A DNA stretch of 52,557 bases. Origin: Streptomyces humicola. Lineage in GTDB: Bacteria > Actinomycetota > Actinomycetes > Streptomycetales > Streptomycetaceae. A program made the position numbers and the translations under genes. The stretch is taken from assembly GCF_024436035.1 (NCBI RefSeq), contig NZ_JANFNG010000040.1, positions 1 to 52,557 on the forward strand, read 5' to 3'. Under the pieces are notes generated by a model, which worked only from the letters and a program-made list of their open reading frames with translations, was not told the origin of the DNA and did no database searches. Of the stretch, positions 8,333-50,343 are shown piece after piece (within the stretch, counting starts at the first letter, position 1; each line of letters opens with the position of its first letter).

Positions 8333-8563
8333 GGGCCCCCTTCCGGTCGCGTGCCTGCTCCTACGGGTGGTTACGGCTGGTGGGACGAGCCCTGCCGCGG
8401 GGCGGGTTCCAAGATCGTGGCCCGGACGGGCCTCTGTGACACGATGCGCACATTCGGGCCTCGCCGGGTCCAGGGCTTTCCGCCGCACTCCGCTCGTGCC
8501 AGCATGGAGCTGATCCGGGGACGCCGTCAGGGCGCCTCGAGACGACGAACAGGAGCCGTTGCC
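8333..8563. promoter_or_regulatory. Divergent intergenic region, exonuclease-like gene and panB
   Basis: These 231 bases separate two outward-facing genes and must hold both promoters. I see no convincing palindrome or consensus promoter. The panB ribosome binding site AGGAG is at 8551-8555. Confidence 0.5.
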
Positions 8564-9418
8564 ATGACGCACGTCGAGGCTGCGCACGACCCGAAGGCCC
8601 TCTACGGCGGGACGGGCACCCGCCGTATCACCGTCCGCGACATCGCCGCCGCCAAACACCGCGGCGAGAAGTGGCCCATGCTCACTGCGTACGACGCCAT
8701 GACCGCCTCCGTCTTCGACGAGGCCGGCATCCCGGTGCTGCTCGTGGGCGACTCCATGGGCAACTGTCACCTCGGCTACGACAGCACCGTCCCGGTCACC
8801 ATGGACGAGATCACCATGCTCTCCGCCGCCGTGGTGCGCGGCACCAAGCGGGCGCTGATCGTCGGCGACCTGCCGTTCGGCTCGTACCAGGAAGGTCCGA
8901 CCCAGGCACTGCGCAGCGCCACCCGCCTCGTCAAGGACGCCGGTGTCGGCGCCGTGAAGCTGGAGGGCGGCGAGCGCTCCGCGCACCAGATCGAGCGGCT
9001 GGTCTCGGCCGGCATCCCGGTAATGGCGCATGTCGGCCTCACCCCGCAGTCCGTGAACGCCTTCGGCGGATACCCCGTGCAGGGGCGCGGCGAGGAGGCC
9101 GCGCAGCAGCTGCTGCGGGACGCCAAGGCGGTGCAGGACGCGGGAGCCTTCGCAGTCGTCCTGGAACTGGTGCCGGCCGAGCTGGCCGCCGAGGTCACCA
9201 CCGCGCTGCACGTCCCGACGGTCGGCATCGGCGCGGGGCCGCACTGCGACGCGCAGGTGCTGGTGTGGACGGACATGGCCGGCATGACGGCCGGCCGGGT
9301 GCCGCGCTTCGTCAAGCAGTACGCGCAGCTGCGCGACGTGCTCAGCGGCGCCGCCACGGCCTTCGCCGACGAGGTGGTCGGCGGCGTCTACCCGGCCGCG
9401 GAGCACTCCTTCCACTGA
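8564..9418 (+). CDS. panB: 3-methyl-2-oxobutanoate hydroxymethyltransferase
   Basis: The 284-residue enzyme transfers a hydroxymethyl group from methylenetetrahydrofolate to 2-oxoisovalerate, giving ketopantoate for pantothenate and CoA synthesis. It shows the family landmarks MLTAYDAMTASVFDEAGI, LLVGDSMG with the metal-binding aspartate, VKLEGG, and AHVGLTPQSVNAFGGYPVQG. The start ATG 8564 has AGGAG nine bases upstream; a roughly 20-residue N-terminal extension before the barrel is common in streptomycetes. No panC or panD is adjacent. Confidence 0.95.
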   Translation: MTHVEAAHDPKALYGGTGTRRITVRDIAAAKHRGEKWPMLTAYDAMTASVFDEAGIPVLLVGDSMGNCHLGYDSTVPVTMDEITMLSAAVVRGTKRALIVGDLPFGSYQEGPTQALRSATRLVKDAGVGAVKLEGGERSAHQIERLVSAGIPVMAHVGLTPQSVNAFGGYPVQGRGEEAAQQLLRDAKAVQDAGAFAVVLELVPAELAAEVTTALHVPTVGIGAGPHCDAQVLVWTDMAGMTAGRVPRFVKQYAQLRDVLSGAATAFADEVVGGVYPAAEHSFH

Positions 9419-9437
9419 CTCCACAGAGCGAACCGAC

Positions 9438-9521
9438 GCACTGAGCAAACGGTCACACTGACAAACGGTCGCACTGAGCAATCGGTCGCACTGAGCAATC
9501 GGTCGCACTGAGCAATCGGTC
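9438..9521. repeat. Array of five 16-17-bp direct repeats upstream of the ECF sigma gene
   Basis: Three perfect copies of GCACTGAGCAATCGGTC (9471-9487, 9488-9504, 9505-9521) follow two degenerate ones (9438-9454 and 9455-9470). They lie between panB and the sigma gene, directly abutting an inverted repeat. They do not encode a plausible protein in any frame. Iteron-like arrays can be protein binding sites, but replication slippage would look the same. Confidence 0.9.
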
Positions 9522-9525
9522 GGCG

Positions 9526-9593
9526 CGCTCCGTATGTCCTGGTGGTTCCCGGCGTGCCCGGGAGCCGGGACATACGACAGGACGTACGGAGCG
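9526..9593. promoter_or_regulatory. Large inverted repeat with two alternative pairings before the sigma gene
   Basis: The left arm CGCTCCGTATGTCCTG (9526-9541) pairs with CAGGACGTACGGAGCG (9578-9593) at 15 of 16 positions. Part of the same left arm, CGTATGTCC, is also perfectly complementary to GGACATACG inside the loop (about 9568-9576). The two structures exclude each other. It may terminate panB transcription or be a leader structure for the sigma gene that starts 20 bases later. Confidence 0.7.
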
Positions 9594-9612
9594 AGTCGAC
9601 CGAGGACCGGGC

Positions 9613-10167
9613 ATGCGCGAGGATGCACTCGTGGCCGACCAGCGGCGCTCCCCCGGCTCCGGCCGGGAGGAGGAACTGATGCGGGCGTTGTATCGCGATC
9701 ACGCGGGCCCGCTGCTCGCGTACGTCTCCCGCCTGGTGGGCGGCGATCGGTATCTCGCCGAGGACGTGGTGCAGGAGACCCTGCTGCGTGCCTGGCGGAG
9801 TGCCCCCCGGCTCGATCCGACCGCCAGATCGCTGCGCCCGTGGCTGGTGACCGTGGCGCGCAGGGTGGTCATCGACATCCACCGCCGTCGTCTCGCCCGG
9901 CCCGACGAGACGGGCCCCGTCGCCCTGGAGCGGGTCCCCGCGGAGGACGAACTCGAGCGTGCGCTGCGGCTGATGACGATCTCGGACGCGCTCGACGAGC
10001 TTTCCGACGCCCATCGCCAGGTGCTCATCGAGACATACTTCAAGGGGCGCACCGCCAACGAGGCCGCGACCGAACTCGGAGTGCCGCCGGGTACCGTACG
10101 GTCGCGGCTCTTCTATGCCTTGCGCAGCCTGCGGATCGCGTTGGAGGAGAGAGGTGTGACCCCATGA
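9613..10167 (+). CDS. ECF-family RNA polymerase sigma factor
   Basis: The 184-residue protein has the two-domain ECF layout. Region 2 (about 25-90) contains LYRDHAGPLLAYVSRLVG, the DVVQETLLRAWR segment and RPWLVTVARRVVIDIHRRR. Region 4 (about 125-175) has the helix-turn-helix NEAATELGVPPGTVRSRLFYAL that recognises the -35 element. A GAGGA site precedes ATG 9613 by seven bases; GTG 9631 is a possible alternative. The stop overlaps the start of the anti-sigma gene by four bases, so the pair is probably made in step. It shows no extra domains. The likely target is its own operon and perhaps the exporter downstream. Confidence 0.93.
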   Translation: MREDALVADQRRSPGSGREEELMRALYRDHAGPLLAYVSRLVGGDRYLAEDVVQETLLRAWRSAPRLDPTARSLRPWLVTVARRVVIDIHRRRLARPDETGPVALERVPAEDELERALRLMTISDALDELSDAHRQVLIETYFKGRTANEAATELGVPPGTVRSRLFYALRSLRIALEERGVTP

Positions 10168-10871
10168 ATGACCACGACCACCTCGATCCCCATGCGACCC
10201 CCCGCGACCCCCATGTCGATGTGGCTGCCTACCTCCTCGGGGCGCTGGACGGCGACGCAATGGACCAATTCGAGCGGCACCTCGCCACCTGCGCCGTGTG
10301 CTCCGCCCGGCTCGACGAGCTCAGTGGCGTGGTGCCGGTGCTTGCGGAGGTGAAGGCGACGGGCGTGCCCCGGCCGCCGGGCGACGGGATGCTCGACCGG
10401 CTGCTCGGCTCGGTGGCGGCCGAGCGCCGTGCGAAGCAGCGACGCCGCGTGCTGGTGGGTGTCGCCGCCTCGGTGCTGATCGTGGCCGGGCCGACAGCGG
10501 CCGTCCTCGGGACGCAGGCCTCCGGGCCGCCGCCATACGTCCAGACCCAGCCGGGCGCGCAGTACAGCGCGACCGACCCGAGCAGCGGCGCACACGCGAC
10601 CCTGCGGCTGACCGGGCAGAAGTGGGGTACCCACGTCGATCTGACGCTCACCAGCGTCTACGGCCCGAATACCTGCCGTCTGGTGGCGGTCGGCCGCTCC
10701 GGGCGACAGGAGACGGTGGCCAACTGGACGGTGCCGACGTCGGGTTACGGCACCGAATATCAGCCCGCCCCGCTCACGGTCCAGGGATCCACCGCCATGT
10801 CGCCGTCCGACATCGCCCGGTTCGACGTCATCGCCTCGACCGGGCAGCATCTGGTCAGCGTGCCGGTGTAA
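10164..10871 (+). CDS. Membrane anti-sigma factor with zinc-binding (ZAS) domain
   Basis: The 235-residue protein has the ZAS signature His39-x3-Cys43-x2-Cys46 (ERHLATCAVC) preceded by an acidic, His-rich N terminus with further possible zinc ligands. One membrane span (about 95-116, VLVGVAASVLIVAGPTAAVL) leads to an extracytoplasmic domain of about 110 residues. The C-terminal domain with a VYGPNTCRLVAVGRSGRQE segment is typical of actinobacterial ECF anti-sigma factors. It should hold the upstream sigma factor at the membrane until an envelope or redox signal releases it. The signal is unknown. Confidence 0.9.
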   Translation: MNDHDHLDPHATPRDPHVDVAAYLLGALDGDAMDQFERHLATCAVCSARLDELSGVVPVLAEVKATGVPRPPGDGMLDRLLGSVAAERRAKQRRRVLVGVAASVLIVAGPTAAVLGTQASGPPPYVQTQPGAQYSATDPSSGAHATLRLTGQKWGTHVDLTLTSVYGPNTCRLVAVGRSGRQETVANWTVPTSGYGTEYQPAPLTVQGSTAMSPSDIARFDVIASTGQHLVSVPV

Positions 10872-39206: not shown

Positions 39207-41390
39207 TCAGGTGACGGTCAGCACCAGCGCTGCCTGGTCGTCGAGGGCGGAACCGCCCGCAAAGTCGGCGACCGCGCCGGTGAGGGAATCGATCAGGGCG
39301 GCGGCGTCGGGAGATGCGCTCCGGGGCGTGGCGATGACGTCGGCCAGGCGGTCCTCGCCGAAGAGCTCCCCAGTGACGGAGCGGGCCTCGGTGATGCCGT
39401 CGGTGACGAGGACGAGCCCGTCGCCCGGGTACAGGTCGACGCTGAGGAGTGAGCCGTCGATCTCCGGTGCGATCCCCAGGAGCAGGCCCGGCCGGGCGAG
39501 TTGTTCCACCGTGCCGTCGGCGCGGCGTACCAGTGGTGGCACGTGGCCGGCGCGGATCAGGTCCAGCGCGAGGTGGGATGCGATGCGCCGCAGTTCGCCG
39601 TAGACGAGGGAGACGAAGCACTCCTCGTCGGTCGTGCCGTCCGTCAGAGCGTGATTGATGGCCCCGACCACGGCTGCCGGGCCGCCCCGGAGAAGGGCGG
39701 CGGCGCGTGCGGTGTGACGGACCATGCCGGTGGTGGCGGCGGCCAGGGCGCCGCGCCCGCACACGTCACCGATCATCAGCGCCCAACGGCCGTCAGGCAG
39801 CGGGAAGACGTCGTAGAAGTCGCCGCCGACGTCGAGCCCTTCACCGGCCGGGTGGTAGGAGGCCGCCAGGGTCGCGCCGGCTATGCGGGGCAACTGAGGA
39901 GGCAGCAGCCCGGCTTGCAGGTCGCGGGCGAGTTGGACGCGGTCGCTGAACTGATGGGCGTTGTCCGCGCTGATCGCGGCCCGGCTGGCGAGTTCCTCCG
40001 CCAGGGCGATGGTGTGGTCGTTGAGGGGTCGGTCGGTGGCGAGGAGGGTCAGCACGCCGAACGTACGGCCGCGCGTAGCCAGCGGCACACAGGCGTAACC
40101 GGTGACGCCGAGCCGCGCGGCGAGACTGCCGGGACGGGCGAGGACCCGTTCGGCCTCGGTTCCGCCGGAGTCCAGCACCCGCGCCACCGCGATGTCGATC
40201 CTGTCGCGCAGGTCGGGAGCGGCGAGGACTTCCTCCTCGGCGCCGGGGGCGCAGGCCACAGCGACACGCCGGACCGACCCGCGCTCGAGCACATGGACGA
40301 CACACAGCTGCGCCAGGGTCGGCACGATCAGCCGGGCCATGCGCTTCAGGCTGTCGGCATAGTGGGCCTCGCTTGCGATTGCGGTGCTGGCCTCCAGTAC
40401 GAAGGCCAGGTCCTCGCGGGCTTCTCGCTCCCTCTCCTGCGCGGCACGGCCGGCCTCGACCGCGCGGTGCCGTTCGATGGCGAGGGCGGCGATACGGGTG
40501 AATGCGGCGCTGATCGCCACATCCGTGTCCTCGGGAGCTCTGGGCGTGCGGTGGTACATCGCGAAGGTGCCCAGCAGCCGGCCGTCCGGGCCTTCGATCG
40601 GCGTGGACCAGCACGCGGCGACCCCGGCCCGCTGGGCCAGTTCGCGGTAGTCCTTCCACAGGGGATCGCCTGCGATGTCCGTGACGACCACCGGCGCGCG
40701 GCGGTGGGCTGCCGTGCCGCACGACCCGGTGGCCTCGCCGATGGCAAGGCCGTCGACCGCCTCGTTGTAGAAGGCCGGCATGCTCGGCGCGGCGCCGTGC
40801 CGCAGATGCCGTCCGTCGGGATCGACGAGCAGCACTGTGGCGATCGTGCCCGGTGACAGTTCCTCGATCGCCCTGGCCATGCCGTCGAGGATCTCCTCCA
40901 GAGGGGCTTGCCGCGCGATCTGCTCCAGCAGGGCGCGCTGCTCCGCGGCGAGGAGCTGGGTGCGGCGGAACGCGGTGGTCTCGACGGCGAGCACCACGAC
41001 CCCGTCTACCTGGCCGAATGCGTCCCGGCGGGGCTCGTACGTGACGTCGAAGAACTCCGCCCGCTCCGCCCCCGGCTCACCGAGCACGAGCCGCTCTCCG
41101 CGGGCCCGGTGGACGATGCCGGTGTAGTAGACCGTGTCGAGCCGGTCGAGGACGCCCTGCGGGACCAGTTCCGGGATCACCTCGCCGATCGGCGCACCGG
41201 TACGCCGCCGGTCGCCGCCGAATGCCTCGAAGAACGCCGAATTCGCCGCCTCCAGCACGTGCGTCGGGCCGCCGAGTGCGGCGAAGATCACCGGGGCCTG
41301 CCCGAACAGGTCCGCGTAGTCCTCGGTCCGTGGGTGCGCGGACGGTGGATGTGCAGCGACCGAGCCAGGCCGATCAGTGTGTGTGGACAT
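39207..41390 (-). CDS. PAS-GAF-GAF PP2C-type (SpoIIE) serine phosphatase
   Basis: The 727-residue protein starts at ATG 41390 (MSTHTDRPG) after GAGGTGG. Domains in order are a PAS domain (about 20-140, with FFDVTYEPRRD), a GAF domain (about 150-310, TGSCGTAAHRRAPVVV), a second GAF domain (about 330-500), and a PP2C/RsbU-like phosphatase (about 510-727). The metal-binding sites are in VGGDFYDVF, ALMIGDVCGRG and LVLVTDGITEA, and the end has SALDDQAALVL. It probably dephosphorylates an anti-anti-sigma factor in response to a sensed ligand or redox state. No anti-sigma partner is adjacent. Confidence 0.92.
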   Translation of the reverse strand: MSTHTDRPGSVAAHPPSAHPRTEDYADLFGQAPVIFAALGGPTHVLEAANSAFFEAFGGDRRRTGAPIGEVIPELVPQGVLDRLDTVYYTGIVHRARGERLVLGEPGAERAEFFDVTYEPRRDAFGQVDGVVVLAVETTAFRRTQLLAAEQRALLEQIARQAPLEEILDGMARAIEELSPGTIATVLLVDPDGRHLRHGAAPSMPAFYNEAVDGLAIGEATGSCGTAAHRRAPVVVTDIAGDPLWKDYRELAQRAGVAACWSTPIEGPDGRLLGTFAMYHRTPRAPEDTDVAISAAFTRIAALAIERHRAVEAGRAAQEREREAREDLAFVLEASTAIASEAHYADSLKRMARLIVPTLAQLCVVHVLERGSVRRVAVACAPGAEEEVLAAPDLRDRIDIAVARVLDSGGTEAERVLARPGSLAARLGVTGYACVPLATRGRTFGVLTLLATDRPLNDHTIALAEELASRAAISADNAHQFSDRVQLARDLQAGLLPPQLPRIAGATLAASYHPAGEGLDVGGDFYDVFPLPDGRWALMIGDVCGRGALAAATTGMVRHTARAAALLRGGPAAVVGAINHALTDGTTDEECFVSLVYGELRRIASHLALDLIRAGHVPPLVRRADGTVEQLARPGLLLGIAPEIDGSLLSVDLYPGDGLVLVTDGITEARSVTGELFGEDRLADVIATPRSASPDAAALIDSLTGAVADFAGGSALDDQAALVLTVT

Positions 41391-41652
41391 GGCGGTCCAC
41401 CTCTCGTGCGTACGGCGAGCGCGCCGTCGCGTTCTACCCGGTACCCACACTCTGACACAGTGCCGCGAGGATGCCAGGTCCCGGCCGGGTCGATCGCTGC
41501 AGCGGACCGGCTCGCCACGCACGGTAGCAGGAAGCGTGGCGGGGGACGCACGGGTGCGAGCGCGGAAAAATCATGCAAGCACGCTTGCTTGTTTCTTGCA
41601 GCACTGCGAAGCTGAGGAGTGTCGGTCGTCCATCCTGCGAACGGAGCGGATC
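41391..41652. promoter_or_regulatory. Divergent intergenic region ahead of the catabolic operon
   Basis: These 262 bases separate the phosphatase gene from the carboxylase-containing operon and hold both promoters. An unusually AT-rich patch, GAAAAATCATGCAAGC (about 41565-41580), runs into the palindrome at 41575-41588. Nothing else stands out. Confidence 0.5.
41575..41588. promoter_or_regulatory. Perfect 14-bp palindrome: candidate operator of the catabolic operon
   Basis: GCAAGC-AC-GCTTGC is a perfect dyad except for the central two bases, followed by further GCTTG and CTTGC elements to 41600. It lies 65 bases before the first gene of the operon. TetR-type repressors of acyl-CoA pathways often bind CAAG...CTTG dyads, and a TetR gene closes this operon, so autoregulation is likely. 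Confidence 0.6.
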
Positions 41653-42474
41653 ATGGCGGATCCTGGCGCGGTACTCGACGATCTGAGCGCCGAGAGTGCC
41701 GAGTTGGACGCGCTCGTGACCGGGCTCGCGCCGGAGCTGTGGGCACGGCCCACGCCCGCACCGGGGTGGAGCGTCGCCCATCAGATCGCCCACCTCGCCT
41801 GGACCGACGAGCGGGCCCTGCAGGCCGCAGCCGATCCCGAGGGGTTCGCGCGCGAGGTCCGCCGGGCGGTCGCTTCGGGCCTCGGCATCGTCGACGCGCA
41901 GGCGCAGCTGGGGGCGGGGATGCCGCCCGCGAAGCTGCTCGCGCGCTGGCGGGAGGGCCGCGAAGCCCTGCTCAAGGCGCTGCGGGCGCTGCCGTCAGGG
42001 GCGCGGCTGCCCTGGTTCGGCCCGTCGATGGGCGTCGCCGCGATGGCCTCGGCGCGGATCATGGAGACCTGGGCGCACGGACAGGACGTTGCCGATGCGC
42101 TCGGCGTGTGCCGGGAGCCCACCGCGCGGCTGCGGCATGTGGCATGGATCGGTGTCCGCACACGGGACTTCGCCTTCGTCTCGCGTGGCCTGAACCCGCC
42201 CGCCGAGGAGTTCCGGGTCGAGCTGGTCCCGGTGCGCAGCGACGATGCTCCGTGGGTGTACGGGCCGAGGGACGCTGCCCAGCGGGTGGTGGGCCCGGCC
42301 CTCGACTTCTGTCTCCTGGTCACTCAGCGGGTGCACCGTGACGACACCGGCCTGGCCGCCGAGGGGCCGGACGCCGAGCGGTGGCTCGGGATCGCGCAGG
42401 CGTTCGCCGGACCACCCGGCCCTGGGCGTGAGCCCAAGGAGTCCGAGGGGCGTGCGAAGGGACCGGCGAGGTGA
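41653..42474 (+). CDS. TIGR03084-family metal-binding protein (DinB/maleylpyruvate isomerase-like)
   Basis: The 273-residue protein has the mycothiol-maleylpyruvate isomerase-like N-terminal domain: WARPTPAPGWSVAHQIAHLAW with a likely metal-binding histidine, and later METWAHGQDVADALG with His-x3-Asp. The C-terminal half carries GPRDAAQRVVGPALDFCLLVTQR. It belongs to a family defined mainly by its place beside AtuA-like and acyl-CoA carboxylase genes; the reaction is unknown. A mycothiol- or metal-dependent isomerase role is a guess from fold. Its stop overlaps the next start (GTGA). Confidence 0.85.
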   Translation: MADPGAVLDDLSAESAELDALVTGLAPELWARPTPAPGWSVAHQIAHLAWTDERALQAAADPEGFAREVRRAVASGLGIVDAQAQLGAGMPPAKLLARWREGREALLKALRALPSGARLPWFGPSMGVAAMASARIMETWAHGQDVADALGVCREPTARLRHVAWIGVRTRDFAFVSRGLNPPAEEFRVELVPVRSDDAPWVYGPRDAAQRVVGPALDFCLLVTQRVHRDDTGLAAEGPDAERWLGIAQAFAGPPGPGREPKESEGRAKGPAR

Positions 42475-44174
42475 CCTTTCGGATCGGCAATGCCTCCGGT
42501 TTCTACGGCGACCGCTTCGACGCGATGCGCGAGATGCTCCTGGGCGGTGACCTGGATGTGCTCACCGGCGATTACCTCGCCGAGCTGACGATGCTCATCC
42601 TCGGCCGGGAGCGGATGAGGGATCCGGGACTCGGCTATGCCAGAACGTTTCTCCGGCAGTTGGAGGAGGGGCTCGGTCTGGCGCAGGAGCGCGGGGTGCG
42701 GATCGTCGCCAATGCGGGCGGGCTCAACCCGGCGGGACTCGCAGACGCGGTACGGAAACTGGCCACCCGCGTCGGCGTTCCCGTCCGCGTCGCACATGTG
42801 GAGGGCGACGAGCTCATCGGGCGCGGCGACTGGGGCGAGGGCGTCGTGGCCGCCAACGCCTATCTCGGCGGGGCCGGGATCACGGCGTGCCTGCGGGCGG
42901 GCGCCGATGTCGTGGTTACGGGCCGGGTGGCCGACGCCGCCCTGGTCAGCGGTCCCGCCGCCGCGCACTACGGCTGGGCCGCCGACGACTGGGACGCTCT
43001 GGCTGGGGCGGTCGTCGCCGGGCACGTGCTCGAATGCGGCACCCAGGCCACCGGCGGCAACTACGCCTTCTTCCGTGAACACGACGTGCGCCACCCGGGC
43101 TTCCCCGTCGCGGAGATCGAGCGCGACGGCTCCAGCGTCATCACCAAGCACCCGGGCACCGGCGGCGCCGTCACCGTCGGCACCGTCACCGCCCAGCTGC
43201 TGTACGAGACGGCCGGGTCCCGCTACCCGGGTCCCGACGTCACGGCGCGCATCGACTCGGTCCGGACGGCCCAGGCCGGCCGCGACCGCGTCCGGATCAC
43301 CGATGTGCGCGGCGAACCCCCGCCGCCCGACCTCAAGGTCGGCCTCAGCCGCATCGGCGGCTGGCGCAACGAGGTCGTCTTCGTCCTCACCGGGCTCGAC
43401 ATCGACGCCAAGGCGGCCCTCGTGCGCGACCAGATGGACGCCGCCGTCGCCGCCGGCGGACGGCGCCCCGCTGAGCTGCGCTGGACGCTGGCCCGCACCG
43501 ACCACCCCGACGCCGCGGTCCAGGAGGAGGCGAGCGCCCTGCTGCGCCTCGTCGCGCGCGATCCGGATCCGGAGAAGGTCGGGCGTGCCGTGAGTGCGCC
43601 CGCCATCGAGCTGGCCCTCGCCAGTGTCCCCGGCTTCCATCTGACCGCCCCGCCGGGCAAGGGCTCGGTGTACGGCGTGTTCTCCGCGGCCCGCACCGCG
43701 CAGGGCAGCGTGTCCCATACCGCCGTACTGCCGGACGGGAGCCGCATCGCCGTTCCCCCTCCCCCGCACTTCCAGGCGCTCGACGACCTCCCGGAGCCTG
43801 CGCTGCCCGAACCCCTGCCGGCCGGTCCCACCCGCCGTGCCCCGCTGGGTGCCGTCGCCGGAGCGCGCAGTGGCGACAAGGGCGGCGACGCCAATGTGGG
43901 GGTGTGGGCCCGCTCCGATGACGCCTGGCGCTGGCTCGCCCATGAGCTCACCGTCGACCGCTTCCGGCAATTGCTCCCGGATGCGGCGGACCTGCCGGTA
44001 GCGCGCCACGTCCTGCCCCGACTGCGGGCGCTGAACTTCGTCGTCGAGGGCCTTCTCGGCCAGGGCGTCGCCTCGCAAGCCCGCTTCGACCCGCAGGCCA
44101 AGGCCGTCGGGGAGTGGCTGCGCGCCCGTTACTTGGAGATTCCGCAGATCCTGCTCATGGGAGAGCCGCTGTGA
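42471..44174 (+). CDS. AtuA-like protein (DUF1446, acyclic terpene utilization family)
   Basis: The 567-residue protein has the DUF1446 domain from the start (MTFRIGNASGFYGDRFDA; GDYLAELTMLILGRER; VANAGGLNPAGLADAV; VVTGRVADAALVSGPAA; HVLECGTQATGGNYAFF). The last 100 residues or so (GAVAGARSGDKGGDANVGVW) form the separate AtuA-like ferredoxin-fold domain seen in this group. GTG 42471 overlaps the previous stop. In Pseudomonas, AtuA is needed for growth on citronellol and geraniol, but its chemistry is unknown. Confidence 0.9.
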   Translation: MTFRIGNASGFYGDRFDAMREMLLGGDLDVLTGDYLAELTMLILGRERMRDPGLGYARTFLRQLEEGLGLAQERGVRIVANAGGLNPAGLADAVRKLATRVGVPVRVAHVEGDELIGRGDWGEGVVAANAYLGGAGITACLRAGADVVVTGRVADAALVSGPAAAHYGWAADDWDALAGAVVAGHVLECGTQATGGNYAFFREHDVRHPGFPVAEIERDGSSVITKHPGTGGAVTVGTVTAQLLYETAGSRYPGPDVTARIDSVRTAQAGRDRVRITDVRGEPPPPDLKVGLSRIGGWRNEVVFVLTGLDIDAKAALVRDQMDAAVAAGGRRPAELRWTLARTDHPDAAVQEEASALLRLVARDPDPEKVGRAVSAPAIELALASVPGFHLTAPPGKGSVYGVFSAARTAQGSVSHTAVLPDGSRIAVPPPPHFQALDDLPEPALPEPLPAGPTRRAPLGAVAGARSGDKGGDANVGVWARSDDAWRWLAHELTVDRFRQLLPDAADLPVARHVLPRLRALNFVVEGLLGQGVASQARFDPQAKAVGEWLRARYLEIPQILLMGEPL

Positions 44175-45769
44175 CCGTGCTCAGCTCCACGCTCGACTCC
44201 GACGGTCCCGAGTACGCCGCCCACCGCGCGGCCATGCTCGGCAAGCTCGCCGCACTCGACGCCGAGCACGCCAAAGCGGTCGCCGGAGGCGGCCCGAAGT
44301 ACGTCGAGCGCCACCATCGACGCGGCAAGCTCCTCGCCCGCGAACGCATCGAACTGCTCCTCGACCCCGACACACCCTTCCTGGAACTCTCCCCGCTGGC
44401 CGGGTGGGGCAGCGACTACCAGGTGGGCGCCTCCCTGGTGACCGGAATCGGTGTCATCGAAGGCGTCGAGTGCCTGGTCACCGCCAATGATCCGACCGTG
44501 CGCGGCGGAGCCAGCAACCCGTGGACCCTGAAGAAGGCGCTGCGTGCCAACGAGATCGCCTTCGCCAACCGGCTCCCCTGCGTCAGTCTCGTCGAATCCG
44601 GCGGGGCCGATCTCCCCAGCCAGAAGGAGATCTTCATCCCGGGCGGGGCGCTCTTCAAGGACCTGACCCGGCTGTCGGCGGCCGGAATCCCCACCATCGC
44701 CGTGGTCTTCGGCAACTCCACCGCCGGCGGCGCCTACATCCCCGGCATGTCGGACCACGTCATCATGGTCAAGGAGCGCGCCAAGGTCTTTCTCGGCGGG
44801 CCGCCGCTGGTCAAGATGGCCACGGGCGAGGAGAGCGACGACGAGTCGCTGGGCGGCGCCGAGATGCACGCCCGCACTTCGGGACTCGCCGACTACTTCG
44901 CCACCGACGAGCAGGATGCCCTGCGCCAGGCCCGGCGCGTCGTCCACCGGCTCAACTGGCGTAAGGCACACCCGGATCCGGGACCCGCCGAGCCTCCGGC
45001 GTACGCGGAGGACGAGCTGCTCGGCATCGTCCCCGACGACCTCAAGACGCCCTTCGATCCCCGTGAGGTCATCGCCCGCATCGTCGACGCCTCCGACTTC
45101 GACGAATTCAAGCCGCTCTACGGCCCCAGCCTGGTGACGGGATGGGCTCGGCTGCACGGCTACCCCGTCGGGATTCTCGCCAACGCCCAGGGCGTCCTGT
45201 TCAGCGCCGAGTCGCAGAAGGCCGCCCAGTTCATCCAGCTCGCCAACCAACGCGACATCCCCCTGGTGTTCCTGCACAACACCACCGGCTACATGGTCGG
45301 CAAGCAGTACGAGCAGGGCGGCATCATCAAGCACGGCGCGATGATGATCAACGCGGTCTCCAACTCCCGTGTCCCCCACCTGTCCGTGCTGGTCGGGGCC
45401 AGCTACGGCGCCGGCCACTACGGCATGTGCGGGCGGGCGTACGATCCCCGCTTCCTGTTCGCCTGGCCCAGCTCCAAGTCCGCGGTGATGGGCCCGCAGC
45501 AGCTCGCCGGGGTCCTCTCCCTCGTCGCCAGGGCATCGGCCGAGGCCAAGGGCCGCCCTTACGACGAGGAGGCGGACGCCTCCTTGCGTGCCATGGTCGA
45601 GCAGCAGATCGAGTCCGAGTCGCTGCCGATGTTCCTGTCCGGCCGGCTCTACGACGACGGTGTCATCGACCCCCGCGACACCCGCACCGTCCTCGGCCTG
45701 TGCCTGTCGGCGATCCACACCGCACCCGTCGAGGGAGCGCGGGGTGGCTTCGGCATCTTCCGAATGTGA
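44171..45769 (+). CDS. Acyl-CoA carboxylase beta (carboxyltransferase) subunit
   Basis: The 532-residue subunit starts at GTG 44171, overlapping the AtuA-like stop. Both crotonase-like halves are present: RGGASNPWTLKKALRANEIA, GGADLPSQKEIF, FGNSTAGGAYIPGMSD in the N half, and LHNTTGYMVGKQYEQGGIIK with GASYGAGHYGMCGRAYDPRF in the C half. This pattern matches methylcrotonyl-CoA and geranyl-CoA carboxylase beta subunits (AccD1/LiuB/AtuC) more than propionyl-CoA carboxylase. It works with the biotin-carrying subunit encoded next. Confidence 0.92.
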   Translation: MTVLSSTLDSDGPEYAAHRAAMLGKLAALDAEHAKAVAGGGPKYVERHHRRGKLLARERIELLLDPDTPFLELSPLAGWGSDYQVGASLVTGIGVIEGVECLVTANDPTVRGGASNPWTLKKALRANEIAFANRLPCVSLVESGGADLPSQKEIFIPGGALFKDLTRLSAAGIPTIAVVFGNSTAGGAYIPGMSDHVIMVKERAKVFLGGPPLVKMATGEESDDESLGGAEMHARTSGLADYFATDEQDALRQARRVVHRLNWRKAHPDPGPAEPPAYAEDELLGIVPDDLKTPFDPREVIARIVDASDFDEFKPLYGPSLVTGWARLHGYPVGILANAQGVLFSAESQKAAQFIQLANQRDIPLVFLHNTTGYMVGKQYEQGGIIKHGAMMINAVSNSRVPHLSVLVGASYGAGHYGMCGRAYDPRFLFAWPSSKSAVMGPQQLAGVLSLVARASAEAKGRPYDEEADASLRAMVEQQIESESLPMFLSGRLYDDGVIDPRDTRTVLGLCLSAIHTAPVEGARGGFGIFRM

Positions 45770-47766
45770 GGCGCACGTTGATCCGCACCCTGCTCGTCGC
45801 CAACCGCGGTGAAATCGCCCGCCGCGTCTTCCGTACCTGCCGTGACCTCGGCATCGCCACGGTCGCCGTGCACTCCGACGCGGACGAGTCGGCCGCGCAC
45901 GTGCGGGAGGCCGACGCCGCGGTGCGCCTGTCCGGCGACTCGCCCGCGGACACCTATCTGCGCGGCGATCTGATCGTGAAGGCGGCCCTGGCGTCCGGAG
46001 CCGACGCCGTCCACCCCGGCTACGGATTCCTCGCCGAGAACCCGGAGTTCGCGCGCTCGGTGACCGATGCCGGGCTGACGTGGATCGGACCGCCGCCCGA
46101 CGCCATCGAGGCGATGGCGTCCAAGACCCGCGCCAAGCAGCTCATGGGCGGGCGGCTGCTGGACCCTGACCGCATCACCGCGGCCGACCTGCCCGTTCTC
46201 GTCAAGGCCGCCGCGGGCGGCGGCGGACGGGGCATGCGCATCGTCCGCGACCTCGACGAGCTCCCCGGGCAGCTGGCGGCCGCCTCCACCGAGGCCGCAT
46301 CGTCCTTCGGCGACGGAGAGGTCTTCGTCGAGCCGTACCTGGAGCACGCCCGCCATGTGGAGGTTCAGCTGCTCGCCGACGCCCATGGCACGGTATGGGC
46401 GCTCGGAACCCGCGACTGCTCGCTCCAGCGCCGCCACCAGAAGGTCATCGAGGAGGCACCCGCGCCGGGGCTGCCCGACCGGCTCGTCCGCGAACTGCAG
46501 GACAGGGCGGTCACCGCTGCCCGCGCGGTCGGTTACGTCAGTGCGGGCACCGTCGAATACCTGGTCGCCCCCGACGGCCGCGCCCACTTCCTGGAGATGA
46601 ACACGCGCCTGCAGGTGGAACACCCGGTCACCGAGGCCGTCCACGGAATCGACCTGGTCGCCCTGCAACTGCGCATCGCCGAGGGCGAGAAGCTGCCGTC
46701 CGAGCCGCCCGCCGCCGACGGCCACGCGGTCGAGGCCCGCCTGTACGCCGAGGACCCGGCGAACTCGTGGCAGCCGCAGACGGGTGTGCTGCACCGTCTG
46801 CAAGTGCCGGCTGCGGGCGGAGAAGCGAACGGAAGCTCCGCCGGGAGCGGACGGCTCAGGGTCGATTCAGGGGTGACCGAGGGCTCGGCCATCACCCCCC
46901 ACTACGACCCGATGCTCGCCAAGGTGATCGCCCATGCCCCTACCCGTTCCGAGGCGGTGCGCCTGCTGGCGCACGCCCTTGAACGCGCCCGCATCCACGG
47001 CCCCGTCACCAATCGCGACCTGCTGGTGCGCTCGCTCACCTCTGCGGAGTTCGTCGCGGCCCGTATCGACACCGGCTTCTACGAACGCCACCTCGGACAG
47101 CTCACCGCGCCTGCCGCACACGCCGCGCCCACCGCGCAGGACCCGCAGCGTCTCGCGGCGCTGGCCTGCGCCCTGTCCGACACCGCCGCGCACACCCGCA
47201 CCCTGCCCGGCCGGATCGGTGGCTGGCGCAATGTGCCCTCCCTGCCCCAGGTGAAGAGATACGTGATCGAGCCCGTGGGCACCGAGGTCGAGATCCGCTA
47301 CCGGCTCACCCGCGACGGTCTCGACGCCGACGGCTTCCCCGGCGTCCGGCTGCACCGCGCCGCTCCCGGCCGCGTCACGCTCGACGTCCACGGTGTGCGG
47401 CGGGACTTCGAGATCGCCCGCTACCGCGACCGCATCCACGTGGACAGCAGCGGGCTCGGCGCTCACGCCCTGACCGCTCTCCCCCGCTTCACCGACCCCA
47501 CCGCCCGGACCGAACCGGGCTCACTGCTGGCCCCGATGCCCGGCACCGTGGTCCGCGTCGCCGACGGCCTCGCCCCCGGGGCAGCCGTCATCGAAGGCCA
47601 AGTGCTGCTGTGGCTGGAGGCCATGAAGATGGAACACAAGATCGTCGCCCCCGCCTCAGGCACCCTCACCGCGCTCCACGCCGCCCCCGGCCGCCAGGTC
47701 GAACTCGGCGCCCTTCTCGCCGTCGTCACCGACGAGCCCCGTCCGCAGCAAGTGCCGCAGCCGTAG
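45766..47766 (+). CDS. Acyl-CoA carboxylase alpha subunit (biotin carboxylase plus biotin carrier)
   Basis: The 666-residue subunit has the biotin carboxylase domain (LLVANRGEIARRVFRTCRDL; HPGYGFLAENPEFA; ATP-grasp loop KAAAGGGGRGMRIV near 146; EMNTRLQVEHPVTE), a middle BT-type linker, and a C-terminal biotinyl domain with EAMKMEH, the biotin lysine being about residue 621. Start GTG 45766 overlaps the previous stop. The segment SKTRAKQLMGGRLLDP looks about six residues shorter than the usual AAGVP-containing stretch, a small deletion in a loop. It is of the MCCA/AtuF type. Confidence 0.92.
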   Translation: MRRTLIRTLLVANRGEIARRVFRTCRDLGIATVAVHSDADESAAHVREADAAVRLSGDSPADTYLRGDLIVKAALASGADAVHPGYGFLAENPEFARSVTDAGLTWIGPPPDAIEAMASKTRAKQLMGGRLLDPDRITAADLPVLVKAAAGGGGRGMRIVRDLDELPGQLAAASTEAASSFGDGEVFVEPYLEHARHVEVQLLADAHGTVWALGTRDCSLQRRHQKVIEEAPAPGLPDRLVRELQDRAVTAARAVGYVSAGTVEYLVAPDGRAHFLEMNTRLQVEHPVTEAVHGIDLVALQLRIAEGEKLPSEPPAADGHAVEARLYAEDPANSWQPQTGVLHRLQVPAAGGEANGSSAGSGRLRVDSGVTEGSAITPHYDPMLAKVIAHAPTRSEAVRLLAHALERARIHGPVTNRDLLVRSLTSAEFVAARIDTGFYERHLGQLTAPAAHAAPTAQDPQRLAALACALSDTAAHTRTLPGRIGGWRNVPSLPQVKRYVIEPVGTEVEIRYRLTRDGLDADGFPGVRLHRAAPGRVTLDVHGVRRDFEIARYRDRIHVDSSGLGAHALTALPRFTDPTARTEPGSLLAPMPGTVVRVADGLAPGAAVIEGQVLLWLEAMKMEHKIVAPASGTLTALHAAPGRQVELGALLAVVTDEPRPQQVPQP

Positions 47767-47788
47767 CCGTAGCCCAGGAGGGATCTCC

Positions 47789-48952
47789 ATGAACACCGCG
47801 GTCCTCGAAACCGACGAACACAAAGCGCTGCGCGCCGCCGTCGCCTCTCTCGGCGCCCGCTACGGACGAAGCTACTTCGAACGCGTCGTCAGCGAAGGCC
47901 GGCACACCGACGAGCTGTGGGCGGAGGCCGGCAAGGCCGGCTATCTCGGCGTCAACCTCCCCGAGGCGTACGGCGGCGGAGGAGGCGGCATCACCGAACT
48001 TGCCATTGTGCTGGAGGAACTTGGTGCCGCGGGCTGCCCGTTGCTCATGCTCGTCGTATCGCCCGCCATCTGCGGCACGGTGATCGCGCGGTTCGGCACC
48101 GAGGCGCAGAAGCAGCGCTGGCTGCCGGGTCTTGCCGACGGCAGGATCACCATGGCCTTCGGCATCACCGAACCCGACGCCGGCTCCAACTCGCACCGGA
48201 TCACCACCACGGCACGCCGGGACGGCACGGACTGGCTGCTCACCGGGCGCAAGGTCTTCATATCCGGCGTCGACATCGCCGATGCCACGCTCATCGTCGG
48301 CCGCACCGAGGACGCGAGGACGGGCAAGCTCAAGCCCTGCCTGTTCATCGTCCCCCGCGACACCCCCGGCTTCTCCCGCAGCCCCATCCCCATGGAACTG
48401 CACGCTCCGGAGAAGCAGTTCGAGCTGGTCCTGGACGATGTGCGGCTCCCCGCCGAGGCCCTCGTCGGTGACGAGGACGCCGGCCTGCTGCAGTTGTTCG
48501 CCGGGCTCAATCCCGAACGCATCATGACCGCCGCATTCGCCCTGGGCCTGGGCCGGTACGCGCTCGCCAGGGCGGTCGACTACGCTCGCACCCGGCAGGT
48601 GTGGAAGGAGCCCATCGGCGCCCACCAGGCCATCGCCCACCCGCTCGCCCAGGCACATATCGAGCTCGAACTGGCCCGGCTGATGATGTCCAAGGCCGCC
48701 CACCTTTACGACCGCGGCGACGACGTGGGCGCCGGCGAGGCGGCCAACATGGCGAAGTACGCGGCGGCCGAAGCCGCCGTCAGGACCGTGGACCAGGCGG
48801 TGCACACCCTCGGCGGCAACGGCCTGACGACGGAGTACGGGCTCGGCAGGCTCGTCACCGCGGCCCGGGTGGCGCGGATCGCGCCGGTCAGCCGCGAGAT
48901 GATCCTCAACTACGTATCCCACCAGACCCTGGGACTGCCGAAGTCATACTGA
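47789..48952 (+). CDS. Acyl-CoA dehydrogenase
   Basis: The 387-residue flavoenzyme has the N-terminal helical domain (GYLGVNLPEAYGGGGGGITE), the FAD/substrate segment FGITEPDAGSNSHRITTTA, FISGVDIADATLIVG, and a late GGNGLTTEYGLGRL. The end, ARIAPVSREMILNYVS, replaces the usual YEGTxxI segment that carries the catalytic glutamate in medium-chain enzymes; this form is, from memory, common in actinobacterial homologs, so the catalytic base may be elsewhere. It probably makes the 2,3-double bond ahead of carboxylation. AGGAGG lies upstream of ATG 47789. Confidence 0.9.
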   Translation: MNTAVLETDEHKALRAAVASLGARYGRSYFERVVSEGRHTDELWAEAGKAGYLGVNLPEAYGGGGGGITELAIVLEELGAAGCPLLMLVVSPAICGTVIARFGTEAQKQRWLPGLADGRITMAFGITEPDAGSNSHRITTTARRDGTDWLLTGRKVFISGVDIADATLIVGRTEDARTGKLKPCLFIVPRDTPGFSRSPIPMELHAPEKQFELVLDDVRLPAEALVGDEDAGLLQLFAGLNPERIMTAAFALGLGRYALARAVDYARTRQVWKEPIGAHQAIAHPLAQAHIELELARLMMSKAAHLYDRGDDVGAGEAANMAKYAAAEAAVRTVDQAVHTLGGNGLTTEYGLGRLVTAARVARIAPVSREMILNYVSHQTLGLPKSY

Positions 48953-48985
48953 AGCGAACACAGCGAAGGGAACACAGCACACCTC

Positions 48986-49759
48986 ATGGCCGACGCAACA
49001 CCGCTGGTGCGGCGGGAGTACGACCGCGGGATCACCACCTTGACCCTCGACTCCCCGCACAACCGCAACGCGCTCTCCGCACGCCTGGTGTGCGAACTGC
49101 ACGACGCCCTCGACGCCGCGGCGGCCGACGACGCCACCCGCGCCGTACTGCTCACCCACACCGGCACCACCTTCTGTGCGGGCGCCGACCTCTCGCAAGC
49201 ATCGTCAGATGCCGAGGCCTTGGCATCGGGACCGCTCGGTCTCGCCCGTCTGCTGCGCGCCGTCGTCGAGCTGCCCAAGCCCGTCGTCGCCCGTGTCACG
49301 GGCCACGCCCGGGCCGGCGGCCTCGGGCTGCTCGGCGCCTGCGACATCTCGGCGGCCGGGCCCGGCGCATCGTTCGCCTTCACCGAGGCCCGCCTCGGGC
49401 TCGCCCCGGCGATCATCTCAATCCCGCTGCTGCCCCGCCTCGACCCGCGCGCCGCCGCCCGTTACTACCTCACCGGCGAGCGCTTCGGACCCGAGGAGGC
49501 CGTACGCGTCGGCCTGGTCACCCTGGCCGGCTCCGGTGATGTGGACGAGCTCCTGGCGCCCGTCATCGAGGGCCTGCTCCGTGGCTCACCCCAGGGCCTC
49601 GCCGAATCCAAACGGCTGACGACGCAGGTCCTGCGCGACTCCTTCGACCGCGACACGCAGGACCTCGCCGCCACCTCCGCGCGCCTGTTCGCCTCGGCCG
49701 AGGCGCGCGAGGGGATGGCCGCCTTCCTCGAACGCCGGGATCCGTCATGGGTACGGTGA
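48986..49759 (+). CDS. Enoyl-CoA hydratase, LiuC/AtuE-like
   Basis: The 257-residue crotonase-fold protein has an oxyanion-hole segment GTTFCAGADLSQ and RAGGLGLLGACDI. The first catalytic glutamate of classical hydratases (Glu144 of the rat enzyme) is replaced by glycine in GLGLLGACDI, while the second is kept in FAFTEARLGL. The following LGLAPAIIS resembles the LGLIPAVIS motif of methylglutaconyl-CoA hydratase LiuC and its terpene-pathway homolog AtuE. This fits a hydratase acting on the product of the carboxylase. It overlaps the TetR gene by 13 bases. Confidence 0.87.
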   Translation: MADATPLVRREYDRGITTLTLDSPHNRNALSARLVCELHDALDAAAADDATRAVLLTHTGTTFCAGADLSQASSDAEALASGPLGLARLLRAVVELPKPVVARVTGHARAGGLGLLGACDISAAGPGASFAFTEARLGLAPAIISIPLLPRLDPRAAARYYLTGERFGPEEAVRVGLVTLAGSGDVDELLAPVIEGLLRGSPQGLAESKRLTTQVLRDSFDRDTQDLAATSARLFASAEAREGMAAFLERRDPSWVR

Positions 49760-50343
49760 CATCCCCCAAGCAGGACCGCAGCCGCGCCACGCGCCAGAAG
49801 CTGTTGCAGGCGGCGGTCTCCTGCCTTGCGGAGTACGGCTGGTCGGGTTCCACCGTCGCCGTCGTCGCCGAGCGCGCCGGGGTCTCGCGGGGCGCCGCGC
49901 AGCACCACTTCCCCACCCGCGAGGACCTGTTCACCGCCGCGGTCGAGCACATGGCCGAAGAACGCTCCACCGCCCTGCGCGAACTCGTCGGCGGCGAGGG
50001 CGTCAGGACGACGCACGACATCGTTTCGGCGATCGTCGGGCTCTACACCGGCCCGCTGTTCCGAGCGGCGCTGCAGCTGTGGGTGGCTGCCTCGAACGAA
50101 CCGTCGCTGGCCCCTACGGTCATCGCGCTGGAGGCCCGCATCGGCCGCGAGTCCCATCGCATGGCCGTGGAGCTCCTGGGCGCGGACGAATCCCGCCCCG
50201 GCGTCCGCGAGACGGTCCAAGGATTCCTCGACATGGCACGCGGGCTGGGCCTGGCCAACCTTCTCACCGACGACAGCACACGCCGCAACGGCATCGTGGC
50301 CCACTGGTCCCACCTCATCGAGGACGCGCTCTCGGCGCCGTGA
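49747..50343 (+). CDS. TetR-family transcriptional repressor of the operon
   Basis: The 198-residue protein has an N-terminal TetR helix-turn-helix (RQKLLQAAVSCLAEYGWSGS and VAERAGVSRGAAQHHFPTRE) and a helical ligand-binding domain with GPLFRAALQLWVAA and GRESHRMAVELLG. ATG 49747 lies inside the hydratase gene, so the two are translationally coupled. It probably binds the palindrome at 41575-41588 and senses an acyl-CoA intermediate, as PsrA- or AtuR-like regulators do. Confidence 0.9.
   Translation: MGTVTSPKQDRSRATRQKLLQAAVSCLAEYGWSGSTVAVVAERAGVSRGAAQHHFPTREDLFTAAVEHMAEERSTALRELVGGEGVRTTHDIVSAIVGLYTGPLFRAALQLWVAASNEPSLAPTVIALEARIGRESHRMAVELLGADESRPGVRETVQGFLDMARGLGLANLLTDDSTRRNGIVAHWSHLIEDALSAP

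What the first reader, a model, noticed from the sequence alone, without database searches (positions are those of the whole stretch)
41653..50343. Liu/Atu-like branched acyl-CoA carboxylation pathway headed by a TIGR03084 protein
The operon encodes an acyl-CoA dehydrogenase, an MCC/GCC-type two-subunit carboxylase, a hydratase with the LiuC/AtuE hallmarks (glycine for the first catalytic glutamate, LGLAPAIIS), and an AtuA-like protein. This order of reactions handles 3-methyl-branched enoyl-CoAs, as in leucine or citronellol breakdown. No HMG-CoA lyase is present in the window, the chemistry of AtuA is unknown, and the TIGR03084 protein has no equivalent in the Pseudomonas pathways. It is the best candidate here for undescribed metabolism.
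Basis: partly seen in the sequence, partly recalled or inferred. Interest (0 to 1): 0.62.

Follow-up and report, generated by a model that had tools for sequence, protein, structure and literature searches.

The report
Actinobacterial terpenoid-type acyl-CoA carboxylation operon
A seven-gene operon in an actinobacterium looks like a version of the bacterial pathway that breaks down branched, terpene-like acids rather than a second leucine pathway, and a very similar gene set occurs in mycobacteria, where it appears to match an operon whose job is still unknown.

Summary
In detail: seven co-directional genes (41653-50343) encode TIGR03084, AtuA, carboxyltransferase beta, biotin carboxylase alpha, acyl-CoA dehydrogenase, crotonase and TetR; the first three junctions are GTGA overlaps. 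The beta subunit meets both published pocket criteria for geranyl-CoA carboxylase: Gly for the methylcrotonyl-CoA carboxylase (MCC) Phe, and no three-residue insertion, although its whole length scores closer to MCC. The genome has a separate MCC with Phe, insertion and HMG-CoA lyase. AtuA is the likely lyase: its model's only significant PDB match is an AtuA-family citramalate lyase, and HMG-CoA lyase was found in 0 of 155 other loci. TIGR03084 has the fold of mycothiol-dependent maleylpyruvate isomerase; its reaction is unknown and it is absent from the mycobacterial chromosomal versions seen. Those versions match, as far as I could read the order, the operon Rv0971c-Rv0976c (accA2-accD2), whose role the papers I read call undetermined. 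I rate this a new variant of a known pathway. No activity or substrate was shown here.

The parts
41653..42474 (+). TIGR03084 protein: MDMPI_N/DinB-fold, predicted metal- and thiol-dependent enzyme
   Evidence: TIGR03084 333.9 bits over cut-off; PF11716 MDMPI_N; model pLDDT 91.7, best match 2nsf; H47, E138, H142, D145, R226 invariant in 21 sequences
42471..44174 (+). AtuA family protein with C-terminal AtuA ferredoxin-like domain; proposed acetate-releasing lyase
   Evidence: PF07287 4.3e-147 and PF23544 2.4e-16; fold match 9evf citramalate lyase E 1.1e-13, VIA Z 23.8, rmsd 6.4, 362 residues; GTGA overlap with the gene before
44171..45769 (+). acyl-CoA carboxylase beta (carboxyltransferase) subunit, GCC-type pocket (Gly, no insertion)
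   Evidence: PF01039 2.7e-148; gapless with GCC beta 5ikl over 82 residues; Gly in 113 of 123 beta subunits of related loci, window copy included; tree
45766..47766 (+). biotin carboxylase / biotin carrier alpha subunit
   Evidence: PF00289, PF02786, PF02785, PF00364, PF21139 BT_MCC_alpha; EAMKMEH, the usual biotin site (recalled), read; start inferred from GTGA overlap
47789..48952 (+). acyl-CoA dehydrogenase, catalytic Glu apparently at the isovaleryl-CoA-dehydrogenase position (GLNPER)
   Evidence: PF00441, PF02771, PF02770; GLNPER in 106 of 106 sequences of at least 50% identity; that this is the IVD position is recalled
48986..49759 (+). crotonase-family hydratase (PRK07827), LiuC/AtuE-like active site
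   Evidence: NF005879 374.2 bits over cut-off; Gly/Glu pattern in 98 of 98 counted; nearest solved chains 4knp and 3oc7, named only enoyl-CoA hydratase
49747..50343 (+). TetR-family regulator, probable local repressor (AtuR-like position)
   Evidence: PF00440 6.6e-12; overlaps the hydratase gene; a match lies with the operon in 40 of 43 named Streptomyces loci

Best explanation
This is an Atu-type operon for 3-methyl-branched acyl-CoAs larger than isovaleryl-CoA (citronellyl-, farnesyl- or phytanyl-type). Step 1: the dehydrogenase makes a 3-methyl-2-enoyl-CoA. Step 2: the two-subunit biotin enzyme carboxylates the gamma carbon, with a pocket opened by Gly in place of the MCC Phe. Step 3: the crotonase hydrates the product to a 3-hydroxy-3-(carboxymethyl)acyl-CoA. 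Step 4: AtuA, not an HMG-CoA lyase, splits off the carboxymethyl arm as an acetate unit and leaves a 3-oxoacyl-CoA for beta-oxidation; final 3-methylcrotonyl-CoA goes to the genome's separate MCC-HMGL cluster. TIGR03084 is an accessory thiol-dependent metalloenzyme of the mycothiol-dependent isomerase superfamily. TetR probably represses the operon. Shown here: gene content, pocket and active-site residues, predicted folds, operon conservation, the second MCC. Inferred: every reaction and substrate, the role of AtuA as lyase, the role of TIGR03084.
For: GCC pocket criteria of Jurado et al. (PMC4673880, passages) are both met: Gly and no insertion. Gly stands in 113 of 123 beta subunits of AtuA/TIGR03084 loci (window copy included; loci overlap in part), while the genome's own MCC reads VFPDREHFGRIF. 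That MCC is on C7 with HMGL between its alpha subunit and a dehydrogenase. 36 of 38 AtuA-linked beta subunits in a tree lie apart from two MCC-HMGL controls. HMGL was found in 0 of 155 other loci, of which 123 hold such a beta subunit. AtuA: only significant fold match is citramalate lyase, named in PDB as AtuA family, CmlA; release of acetate from a tertiary hydroxy acid is the type of reaction given for 3-hydroxy-3-isohexenylglutaryl-CoA. Neighbours that could use such products: phosphate acetyl/acyltransferase near AtuA in L081, L148, L254, degradative HMG-CoA reductase in L251. All 7 of 7 genomes searched whose TIGR03084-carboxylase operon lacks AtuA have AtuA elsewhere. An acyl-CoA synthetase lies in 32 of 43 named Streptomyces versions, completing counterparts of atuA, C, D, E, F, H, R.
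Against: Over its whole length the beta subunit scores higher with MCC beta (578.6 bits) than with GCC beta (495.1 bits). The split from MCC has only 89/75 support, no Pseudomonas GCC was in the tree, and two AtuA-linked beta subunits (L152, L154) fall on the PCC side. The hydratase falls far below the curated gamma-carboxygeranoyl-CoA hydratase model (152.3 bits, cut-off 426). No counterpart of atuB, atuG or atuH was seen in the window operon. AtuA's model is of middling confidence (pLDDT 71), and citramalate lyase shares only 14-16% identity. The review gives the lyase step to LiuE, not AtuA. Ten of 123 beta subunits depart from Gly. The phosphate acetyltransferase link is rare (2 of 156 loci, plus L254), and a relative of that gene in L259 has no AtuA in its 19-kb stretch.
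Confidence: 0.68

Rival explanations
1. A second, redundant leucine/isovalerate (Liu) pathway: the carboxylase is an ordinary MCC and the HMG-CoA lyase is supplied from elsewhere in the genome.
For: Best whole-length PDB match is MCC beta; alpha subunit carries BT_MCC_alpha; the genome has six HMGL-like hits elsewhere.
Against: GCC-type Gly and missing insertion; separate MCC-HMGL cluster in the same genome; in M. smegmatis the deletion of accD2-accA2, by gene order the likely counterpart, left growth on isovalerate like wild type (PMC4347857, passages).
Confidence: 0.08
2. Same chemistry, but AtuA is not the lyase: the genome's HMG-CoA lyase on C7 acts on both products, as stated for LiuE in Pseudomonas, and AtuA does something else (for example a carrier, kinase-like or repair role).
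For: Review assigns the lyase step to liuE; I saw no assay of AtuA for this step in what I read; six HMGL-like hits in the genome.
Against: Only significant fold match of AtuA is a lyase of the same reaction type; no HMGL in 155 other loci; AtuA near degradative HMG-CoA reductase or phosphate acetyl/acyltransferase in other loci.
Confidence: 0.2
3. GCC-like enzyme with a non-terpenoid substrate, such as 3-methyl-branched fatty acids of the cell's own lipids or a polyketide or steroid side-chain intermediate.
For: An open pocket may tolerate many chains; two Rhodococcus plasmid versions lie beside MCE transport and SCP2 genes; the M. chubuense version beside MaoC hydratases; the likely mycobacterial counterpart is induced by hypoxia and stationary phase (PMC9283954, passages).
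Against: Nothing decisive; the Dietzia version beside SDRs and a mycofactocin-coupled SDR suggests alcohol input as for terpenols.
Confidence: 0.25

Closest known systems
Acyclic terpene utilisation (Atu) pathway of Pseudomonas (atuABCDEFGH, atuR)
   Same: AtuA, GCC-type beta subunit, alpha subunit, acyl-CoA dehydrogenase, crotonase and TetR regulator in one operon; an acyl-CoA synthetase in 32 of 43 named Streptomyces relatives (pathway description from passages)
   Different: No atuB/atuG counterparts and, in the window, no synthetase; extra TIGR03084 gene; hydratase from family PRK07827 rather than the curated gamma-carboxygeranoyl-CoA hydratase
Mycobacterial operon Rv0971c-Rv0976c (echA7, fadE12, accA2, accD2, fadE13, Rv0976c)
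   Same: Mycobacterial loci fetched read AtuA-ACAD-CT beta-BC alpha-ACAD-ECH; the order echA7, fadE12, accA2, accD2 = Rv0971c to Rv0974c was read, fadE13 is named in the same operon; AccD2 is reported to diverge at the MCC Phe segment
   Different: Mycobacterial form has a second acyl-CoA dehydrogenase and, in the chromosomal loci seen, no TIGR03084 in the operon; no record named M. tuberculosis was fetched; that fadE13 is Rv0975c is recalled and that Rv0976c is the AtuA gene is inferred from order
Leucine/isovalerate (Liu) MCC pathway
   Same: Dehydrogenase, two-subunit gamma-carboxylase and crotonase order of reactions
   Different: Phe plus three-residue insertion in the beta subunit and an adjacent HMG-CoA lyase, both absent here and both present in the genome's C7 cluster and in Sinorhizobium L270
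Citramalate lyase CmlA (PDB 9erq/9evf)
   Same: Named AtuA family in PDB; same fold over 362 residues (Z 23.8, rmsd 6.4); reaction releases an acetate unit from a tertiary hydroxy acid
   Different: Works on citramalate; that its ferredoxin-like part is a separate subunit is a guess from 'subunit A'; fused here; 14-16% identity
Mycothiol-dependent maleylpyruvate isomerase (2nsf) and mycothiol S-transferase (8f5v)
   Same: Fold of the TIGR03084 model (VIA Z 17.2, rmsd 4.2, 222 residues; Z 11.1, rmsd 3.8, 139 residues) and invariant H...ExxxHxxD...R pattern
   Different: 13-16% identity; substrate and thiol cofactor unknown; 8 of 42 genomes with TIGR03084 lack an MshC-like match

Membership tests
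Geranyl-CoA carboxylase beta subunit | Gly at the position of MCC Phe191 (Jurado 2015) | tested here: met
   IFIPGGALF against GCC IFVEGARGF, gapless over 82 residues
Geranyl-CoA carboxylase beta subunit | no three-residue insertion before that residue | tested here: met
   three-residue gap against all five chains shown (MCC, AccD1, and one chain labelled propionyl-CoA carboxylase that has the MCC segment), none against GCC
Geranyl-CoA carboxylase beta subunit | extended N-terminal helix that PCC beta lacks | tested here: inconclusive
   alignment to MCC beta spans 20-551 against 21-555, but local matches to AccD1 and human MCC also start at 45-50 and PCC matches at about 30-55; the helix itself was not modelled
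Geranyl-CoA carboxylase beta subunit | closer to GCC than to MCC over the whole sequence | tested here: not met
   MCC 578.6 bits, GCC 495.1 bits; so it is called GCC-type by pocket, not filed as a GCC orthologue
Geranyl-CoA carboxylase beta subunit | carboxylation of cis-geranyl-CoA | not testable with these tools
   needs enzyme assay
Liu (MCC) operon | Phe and insertion in the beta subunit | tested here: not met
Liu (MCC) operon | HMG-CoA lyase in the cluster | tested here: not met
   no PF00682 hit on contig C34; 0 of 155 other loci by tblastn with the genome's own lyase
Atu operon | AtuA, carboxylase, dehydrogenase, hydratase and TetR together | tested here: met
Atu operon | acyl-CoA synthetase AtuH and dehydrogenases AtuB/AtuG in the operon | tested here: not met
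   none among the genes between 41653 and 50343; a synthetase is present in 32 of 43 named Streptomyces relatives
AtuA family (PF07287) lyase | curated family score and fold of the citramalate lyase member | tested here: met
   490.9 bits, cut-off 22.8, with a model of middling confidence
AtuA family (PF07287) lyase | lyase activity | not testable with these tools
   needs enzyme assay
TIGR03084 hypothetical equivalog | score above curated cut-off | tested here: met
   333.9 against 247.95 bits
MDMPI superfamily | MDMPI_N domain score and overall fold | tested here: met
   PF11716 120 bits, cut-off 24.2; Z 17.2, rmsd 4.2, 222 aligned with 2nsf
MDMPI superfamily | metal-site and interdomain residues | tested here: inconclusive
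   invariant H47, E138, H142, D145, R226 fit by spacing H52, Asp151 and Arg222 (2nsg title), with Glu144 and His148 recalled; atoms were not superposed
MDMPI superfamily | occurrence only with mycothiol synthesis | tested here: inconclusive
   34 of 42 TIGR03084 genomes have an MshC-like match against 35 of 254 others; 8 exceptions

The most novel reading that the evidence does not exclude
Mycothiol-producing actinobacteria run a distinct Atu pathway in which (i) TIGR03084 is a thiol-dependent Z/E isomerase that presents the cis 3-methyl-enoyl-CoA that the GCC-type carboxylase needs, and (ii) AtuA is an ATP-dependent lyase that activates the free carboxylate and releases acetyl phosphate plus a 3-oxoacyl-CoA, replacing HMG-CoA lyase; and this pathway is the missing function of the hypoxia-induced AccA2-AccD2 operon of mycobacteria. 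Hints: the authors of the GCC structure judge the trans isomer unlikely to fit, and maleylpyruvate isomerase does a cis-trans isomerisation with a thiol cofactor (mechanism recalled); the lyase was solved with ADP and pyruvate; phosphate acetyl/acyltransferase genes lie near AtuA in three loci. Against part (i): 0 of 24 named mycobacterial loci, some cut short, show TIGR03084 with the operon, and the mycobacterial copies lie among unrelated genes.
Probability: 0.15. Interest if true: 0.82.

Novelty: new variant of a known kind. Interest (0 to 1): 0.58.

Why it matters
Three loose ends become testable together. First, the mycobacterial AccA2-AccD2 carboxylase, left 'an open question' in 2015 (PMC4347857, passages) and said to have no determined role in a 2022 paper that reports 20-300-fold induction of its operon in hypoxia and stationary phase (PMC9283954, passages), gains a concrete substrate class from its likely operon partners and pocket residue. 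Second, AtuA gains a likely reaction from a solved relative and from its neighbours. Third, a large actinobacterial family of unknown function (TIGR03084; 0 papers in the held library) is tied to acyl-CoA chemistry and to the fold of thiol-dependent enzymes. If true, Streptomyces and mycobacteria share a route for isoprenoid-type acids, while the annotated versions seen here carry only generic carboxylase labels.

Tried and rejected
Plain MCC: rejected on pocket residue, second MCC cluster and absence of HMGL. Broken biotin carboxylase: the short segment after MASKTRAK in the alpha subunit recurs in similar form in several relatives, so it is not read as damage. TIGR03084 as a strict part of the pathway: rejected as stated; 12 of 29 TIGR03084 loci of the window's family set, hand-picked to include low-scoring copies, have neither AtuA nor the carboxylase, and two Streptomyces plasmid copies sit with DUF5987, GMC oxidoreductase and P450 genes. 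In a tree its AtuA-linked members are not one clade (8 changes needed). Twelve further TIGR03084 loci away from AtuA, six of them from genomes with the AtuA operon elsewhere, gave no clear clue: none holds AtuA or the carboxylase beta subunit, two (L282, L283) have acyl-CoA genes in the stretch, and two mycobacterial ones follow a gene of transporter-like size. Strict mycothiol dependence: not established. The Fisher values ignore kinship and are only descriptive; the MshC threshold (E 1e-100) was chosen after seeing the list. VIA-align could rank only what Foldseek returned. A sequence-profile search of TIGR03084 against PDB gave only chance-level hits. Paper searches for citramalate lyase found no account of 9erq/9evf, and the DUF1446/AtuA-family search gave only a 2015 remark of use. 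Dropped before counts: only every third named-genome row was kept for the tree (64 rows of 94); hits under 45% identity were not listed; only crotonases of at least 40% and dehydrogenases of at least 50% identity were counted; the 48 tree rows were picked by hand.


Full report
What is there. The window is the whole contig C34 of a 7.07 Mb genome; the window has about 71% GC. Seven genes run in one direction from 41653 to 50343: TIGR03084, AtuA, carboxyltransferase beta, biotin carboxylase alpha, acyl-CoA dehydrogenase, crotonase, TetR. The first three junctions are 4-bp GTGA overlaps (sequence printed), so these genes are very probably co-translated.

The carboxylase. Jurado et al. (PMC4673880; passages read) give rules: MCC beta has a Phe in the active site and a three-residue insertion just before it; GCC beta has Gly and no insertion; swapping the residue shifts preference. 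The window protein aligns without gaps to GCC beta over the 82 residues around this site, Gly against Gly. The five chains shown (MCC, AccD1, and one labelled propionyl-CoA carboxylase) have DREHF, DRDHF or DKEHF, with the insertion. In three sets of loci (family set, phylum set plus six plasmids, named set), 113 of 123 beta subunits lying with AtuA or TIGR03084 have Gly there, 4 Ala, 4 a longer segment that the script scored as Ser, and 2 another longer segment; the window's own copy is one of the 123, and the one MCC control in the run, from the window's genome, reads VFPDREHFGRIF. The sets overlap in part, so these are loci, not independent events. In a maximum-likelihood tree of 48 hand-picked rows, 40 rows (36 AtuA-linked, 4 TIGR03084-linked) lie apart from the own-genome MCC and a Sinorhizobium MCC that sits with an HMG-CoA lyase gene, with moderate support (89/75); two AtuA-linked rows fall with PCC-type rows; no Pseudomonas GCC was in that tree. 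Against: whole-length scores favour MCC beta.

A separate leucine pathway exists. The genome's second MCC-type beta subunit is on C7 (53% identity), followed by its alpha subunit and an HMGL-like gene. So a leucine role for C34 is not needed, and its pocket argues against it.

The other enzymes. The dehydrogenase carries Glu in a GLNPER motif in 106 of 106 relatives of at least 50% identity; I recall this as the isovaleryl-CoA dehydrogenase position. 32 of 43 named Streptomyces loci, two of the other 11 being cut short, have an acyl-CoA synthetase in the operon, which the window lacks. With it the set parallels atuA, C, D, E, F, H and R (pathway from passages of PMC4847356 and PMC4097962).

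AtuA as the lyase. [quoted passage not shown] the review (PMC4097962) gives the step to LiuE. The AtuA model (pLDDT 71) has one significant Foldseek match in the PDB, 9evf, citramalate lyase with ADP and pyruvate (E 1.1e-13), supported by VIA-align (Z 23.8, rmsd 6.4, 362 residues); the PDB sequence search names the same chain an AtuA-family protein and citramalate lyase subunit A (E 0.0019). A 2015 paper (PMC4682846, passages) had noted a DUF1446 gene in a citramalate-forming cluster whose citramalate cleavage was unexplained. Gene neighbours fit: phosphate acetyl/acyltransferase near AtuA in Rhodococcus gordoniae L081, Rhodococcus ruber L254 and the unnamed L148; degradative HMG-CoA reductase with AtuA and a separate ferredoxin-like protein in the archaeon Salinigranum. 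But this link is rare: tblastn found the transferase in 2 of 156 loci, and a relative in L259 has no AtuA in its stretch. A tblastn with the genome's own HMG-CoA lyase finds it in its own MCC locus and in 0 of 155 other loci, most of them stretches of about 20 kb. Seven genomes whose TIGR03084-carboxylase operon lacks AtuA all carry AtuA elsewhere (7 of 7). The idea of an ATP-dependent, acetyl-phosphate-releasing reaction is my inference from ADP in the structure and the transferase genes.

TIGR03084. The model (pLDDT 91.7) matches mycothiol-dependent maleylpyruvate isomerase best (Foldseek E 1.5e-6; VIA Z 17.2, rmsd 4.2, 222 residues). H47, E138, H142, D145 and R226 are invariant in 21 sequences, in the spacing of the isomerase's metal site and of its Asp151-Arg222 pair (H52 from the 2nsg title; Asp151 and Arg222 from passages of PMC8562490; Glu144 and His148 recalled). 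Across 296 phylum genomes 35 of 42 with TIGR03084 over its cut-off also have AtuA, against 21 of 254 without; outside the window's class 16 of 23 against 20 of 247. Of 76 loci with both, 65 have TIGR03084 just upstream of AtuA on one strand, and 56 of these 65 junctions allow a 4-bp overlap. But it is not exclusive: it has other contexts, it was found with the operon in 0 of 24 named mycobacterial loci (some cut short), and 8 of 42 genomes with it lack an MshC-like match. Its reaction stays open; an E/Z isomerase is the boldest reading.

Link to mycobacteria. Mycobacterial loci, unnamed (L116-L119) and named (for example L193, M. celatum), read AtuA, dehydrogenase, beta, alpha, dehydrogenase, crotonase; that L116-L119 are mycobacterial is inferred from their grouping with named ones. 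PMC9283954 (passages) describes Rv0971c-Rv0976c as one operon with echA7, fadE12, accA2, accD2 and fadE13; a table in PMC4564863 (passages) gives echA7, fadE12, accA2, accD2 as Rv0971c to Rv0974c. The order of these four fits; that fadE13 is Rv0975c is recalled, and that Rv0976c is the AtuA gene is inferred. PMC4347857 (passages) found AccD2 divergent at the MCC segment, normal growth of the M. smegmatis mutant on isovalerate, and left the function open. My reading makes AccA2-AccD2 a GCC-type carboxylase.

Verdict. Observation confirmed; interpretation partly supported and moved from Liu to Atu; a new variant of a known kind, widespread in actinobacteria, with a good chance of explaining an orphan mycobacterial operon. 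All reactions are inferred.

Noticed in passing
L115:9260-11041 (own genome, contig C38): A second AtuA gene with ferredoxin-like domain, with no carboxylase match in the stretch; its neighbours look like a DeoR-type regulator and sugar isomerase/aldolase genes, judged by eye only.
   Followed up: partly
window 45766-47766: Biotin carboxylase is several residues shorter than usual just after MASKTRAK; similarly short in several relatives, longer in others.
   Followed up: partly
L251:5730-8693: Haloarchaeal three-gene set: degradative HMG-CoA reductase, AtuA, separate AtuA ferredoxin-like protein; suggests mevalonate or HMG-CoA breakdown through AtuA.
   Followed up: partly
L081:5580-8286, L254:7594-11030, L148 about 8233-10760: Phosphate acetyl/acyltransferase genes near split AtuA and ferredoxin-like genes in three loci.
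   Followed up: partly
L235:3646-9000, L236:3031-6786: TIGR03084 genes on Streptomyces plasmids beside DUF5987, GMC oxidoreductase and P450 genes, a context apart from acyl-CoA carboxylation.
   Followed up: no
L082, L084: Rhodococcus plasmid versions of the operon lie next to MCE transport, SCP2 and flavin reductase genes, hinting at lipid or terpenoid uptake.
   Followed up: no
L152, L154: Beta subunits beside AtuA with only 37% identity and an RRAWGNIF segment at the pocket site; they group on the PCC side of the tree.
   Followed up: no
L255:10685-13770: Sphingobium plasmid: AtuA-carboxylase set followed by a methylmalonyl-CoA mutase family protein, cobalamin-dependent protein and MeaB.
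   Followed up: no
window 39207-41522 (-): GAF/SpoIIE-type phosphatase, with a weak PAS match, divergent from the operon and just upstream.
   Followed up: no
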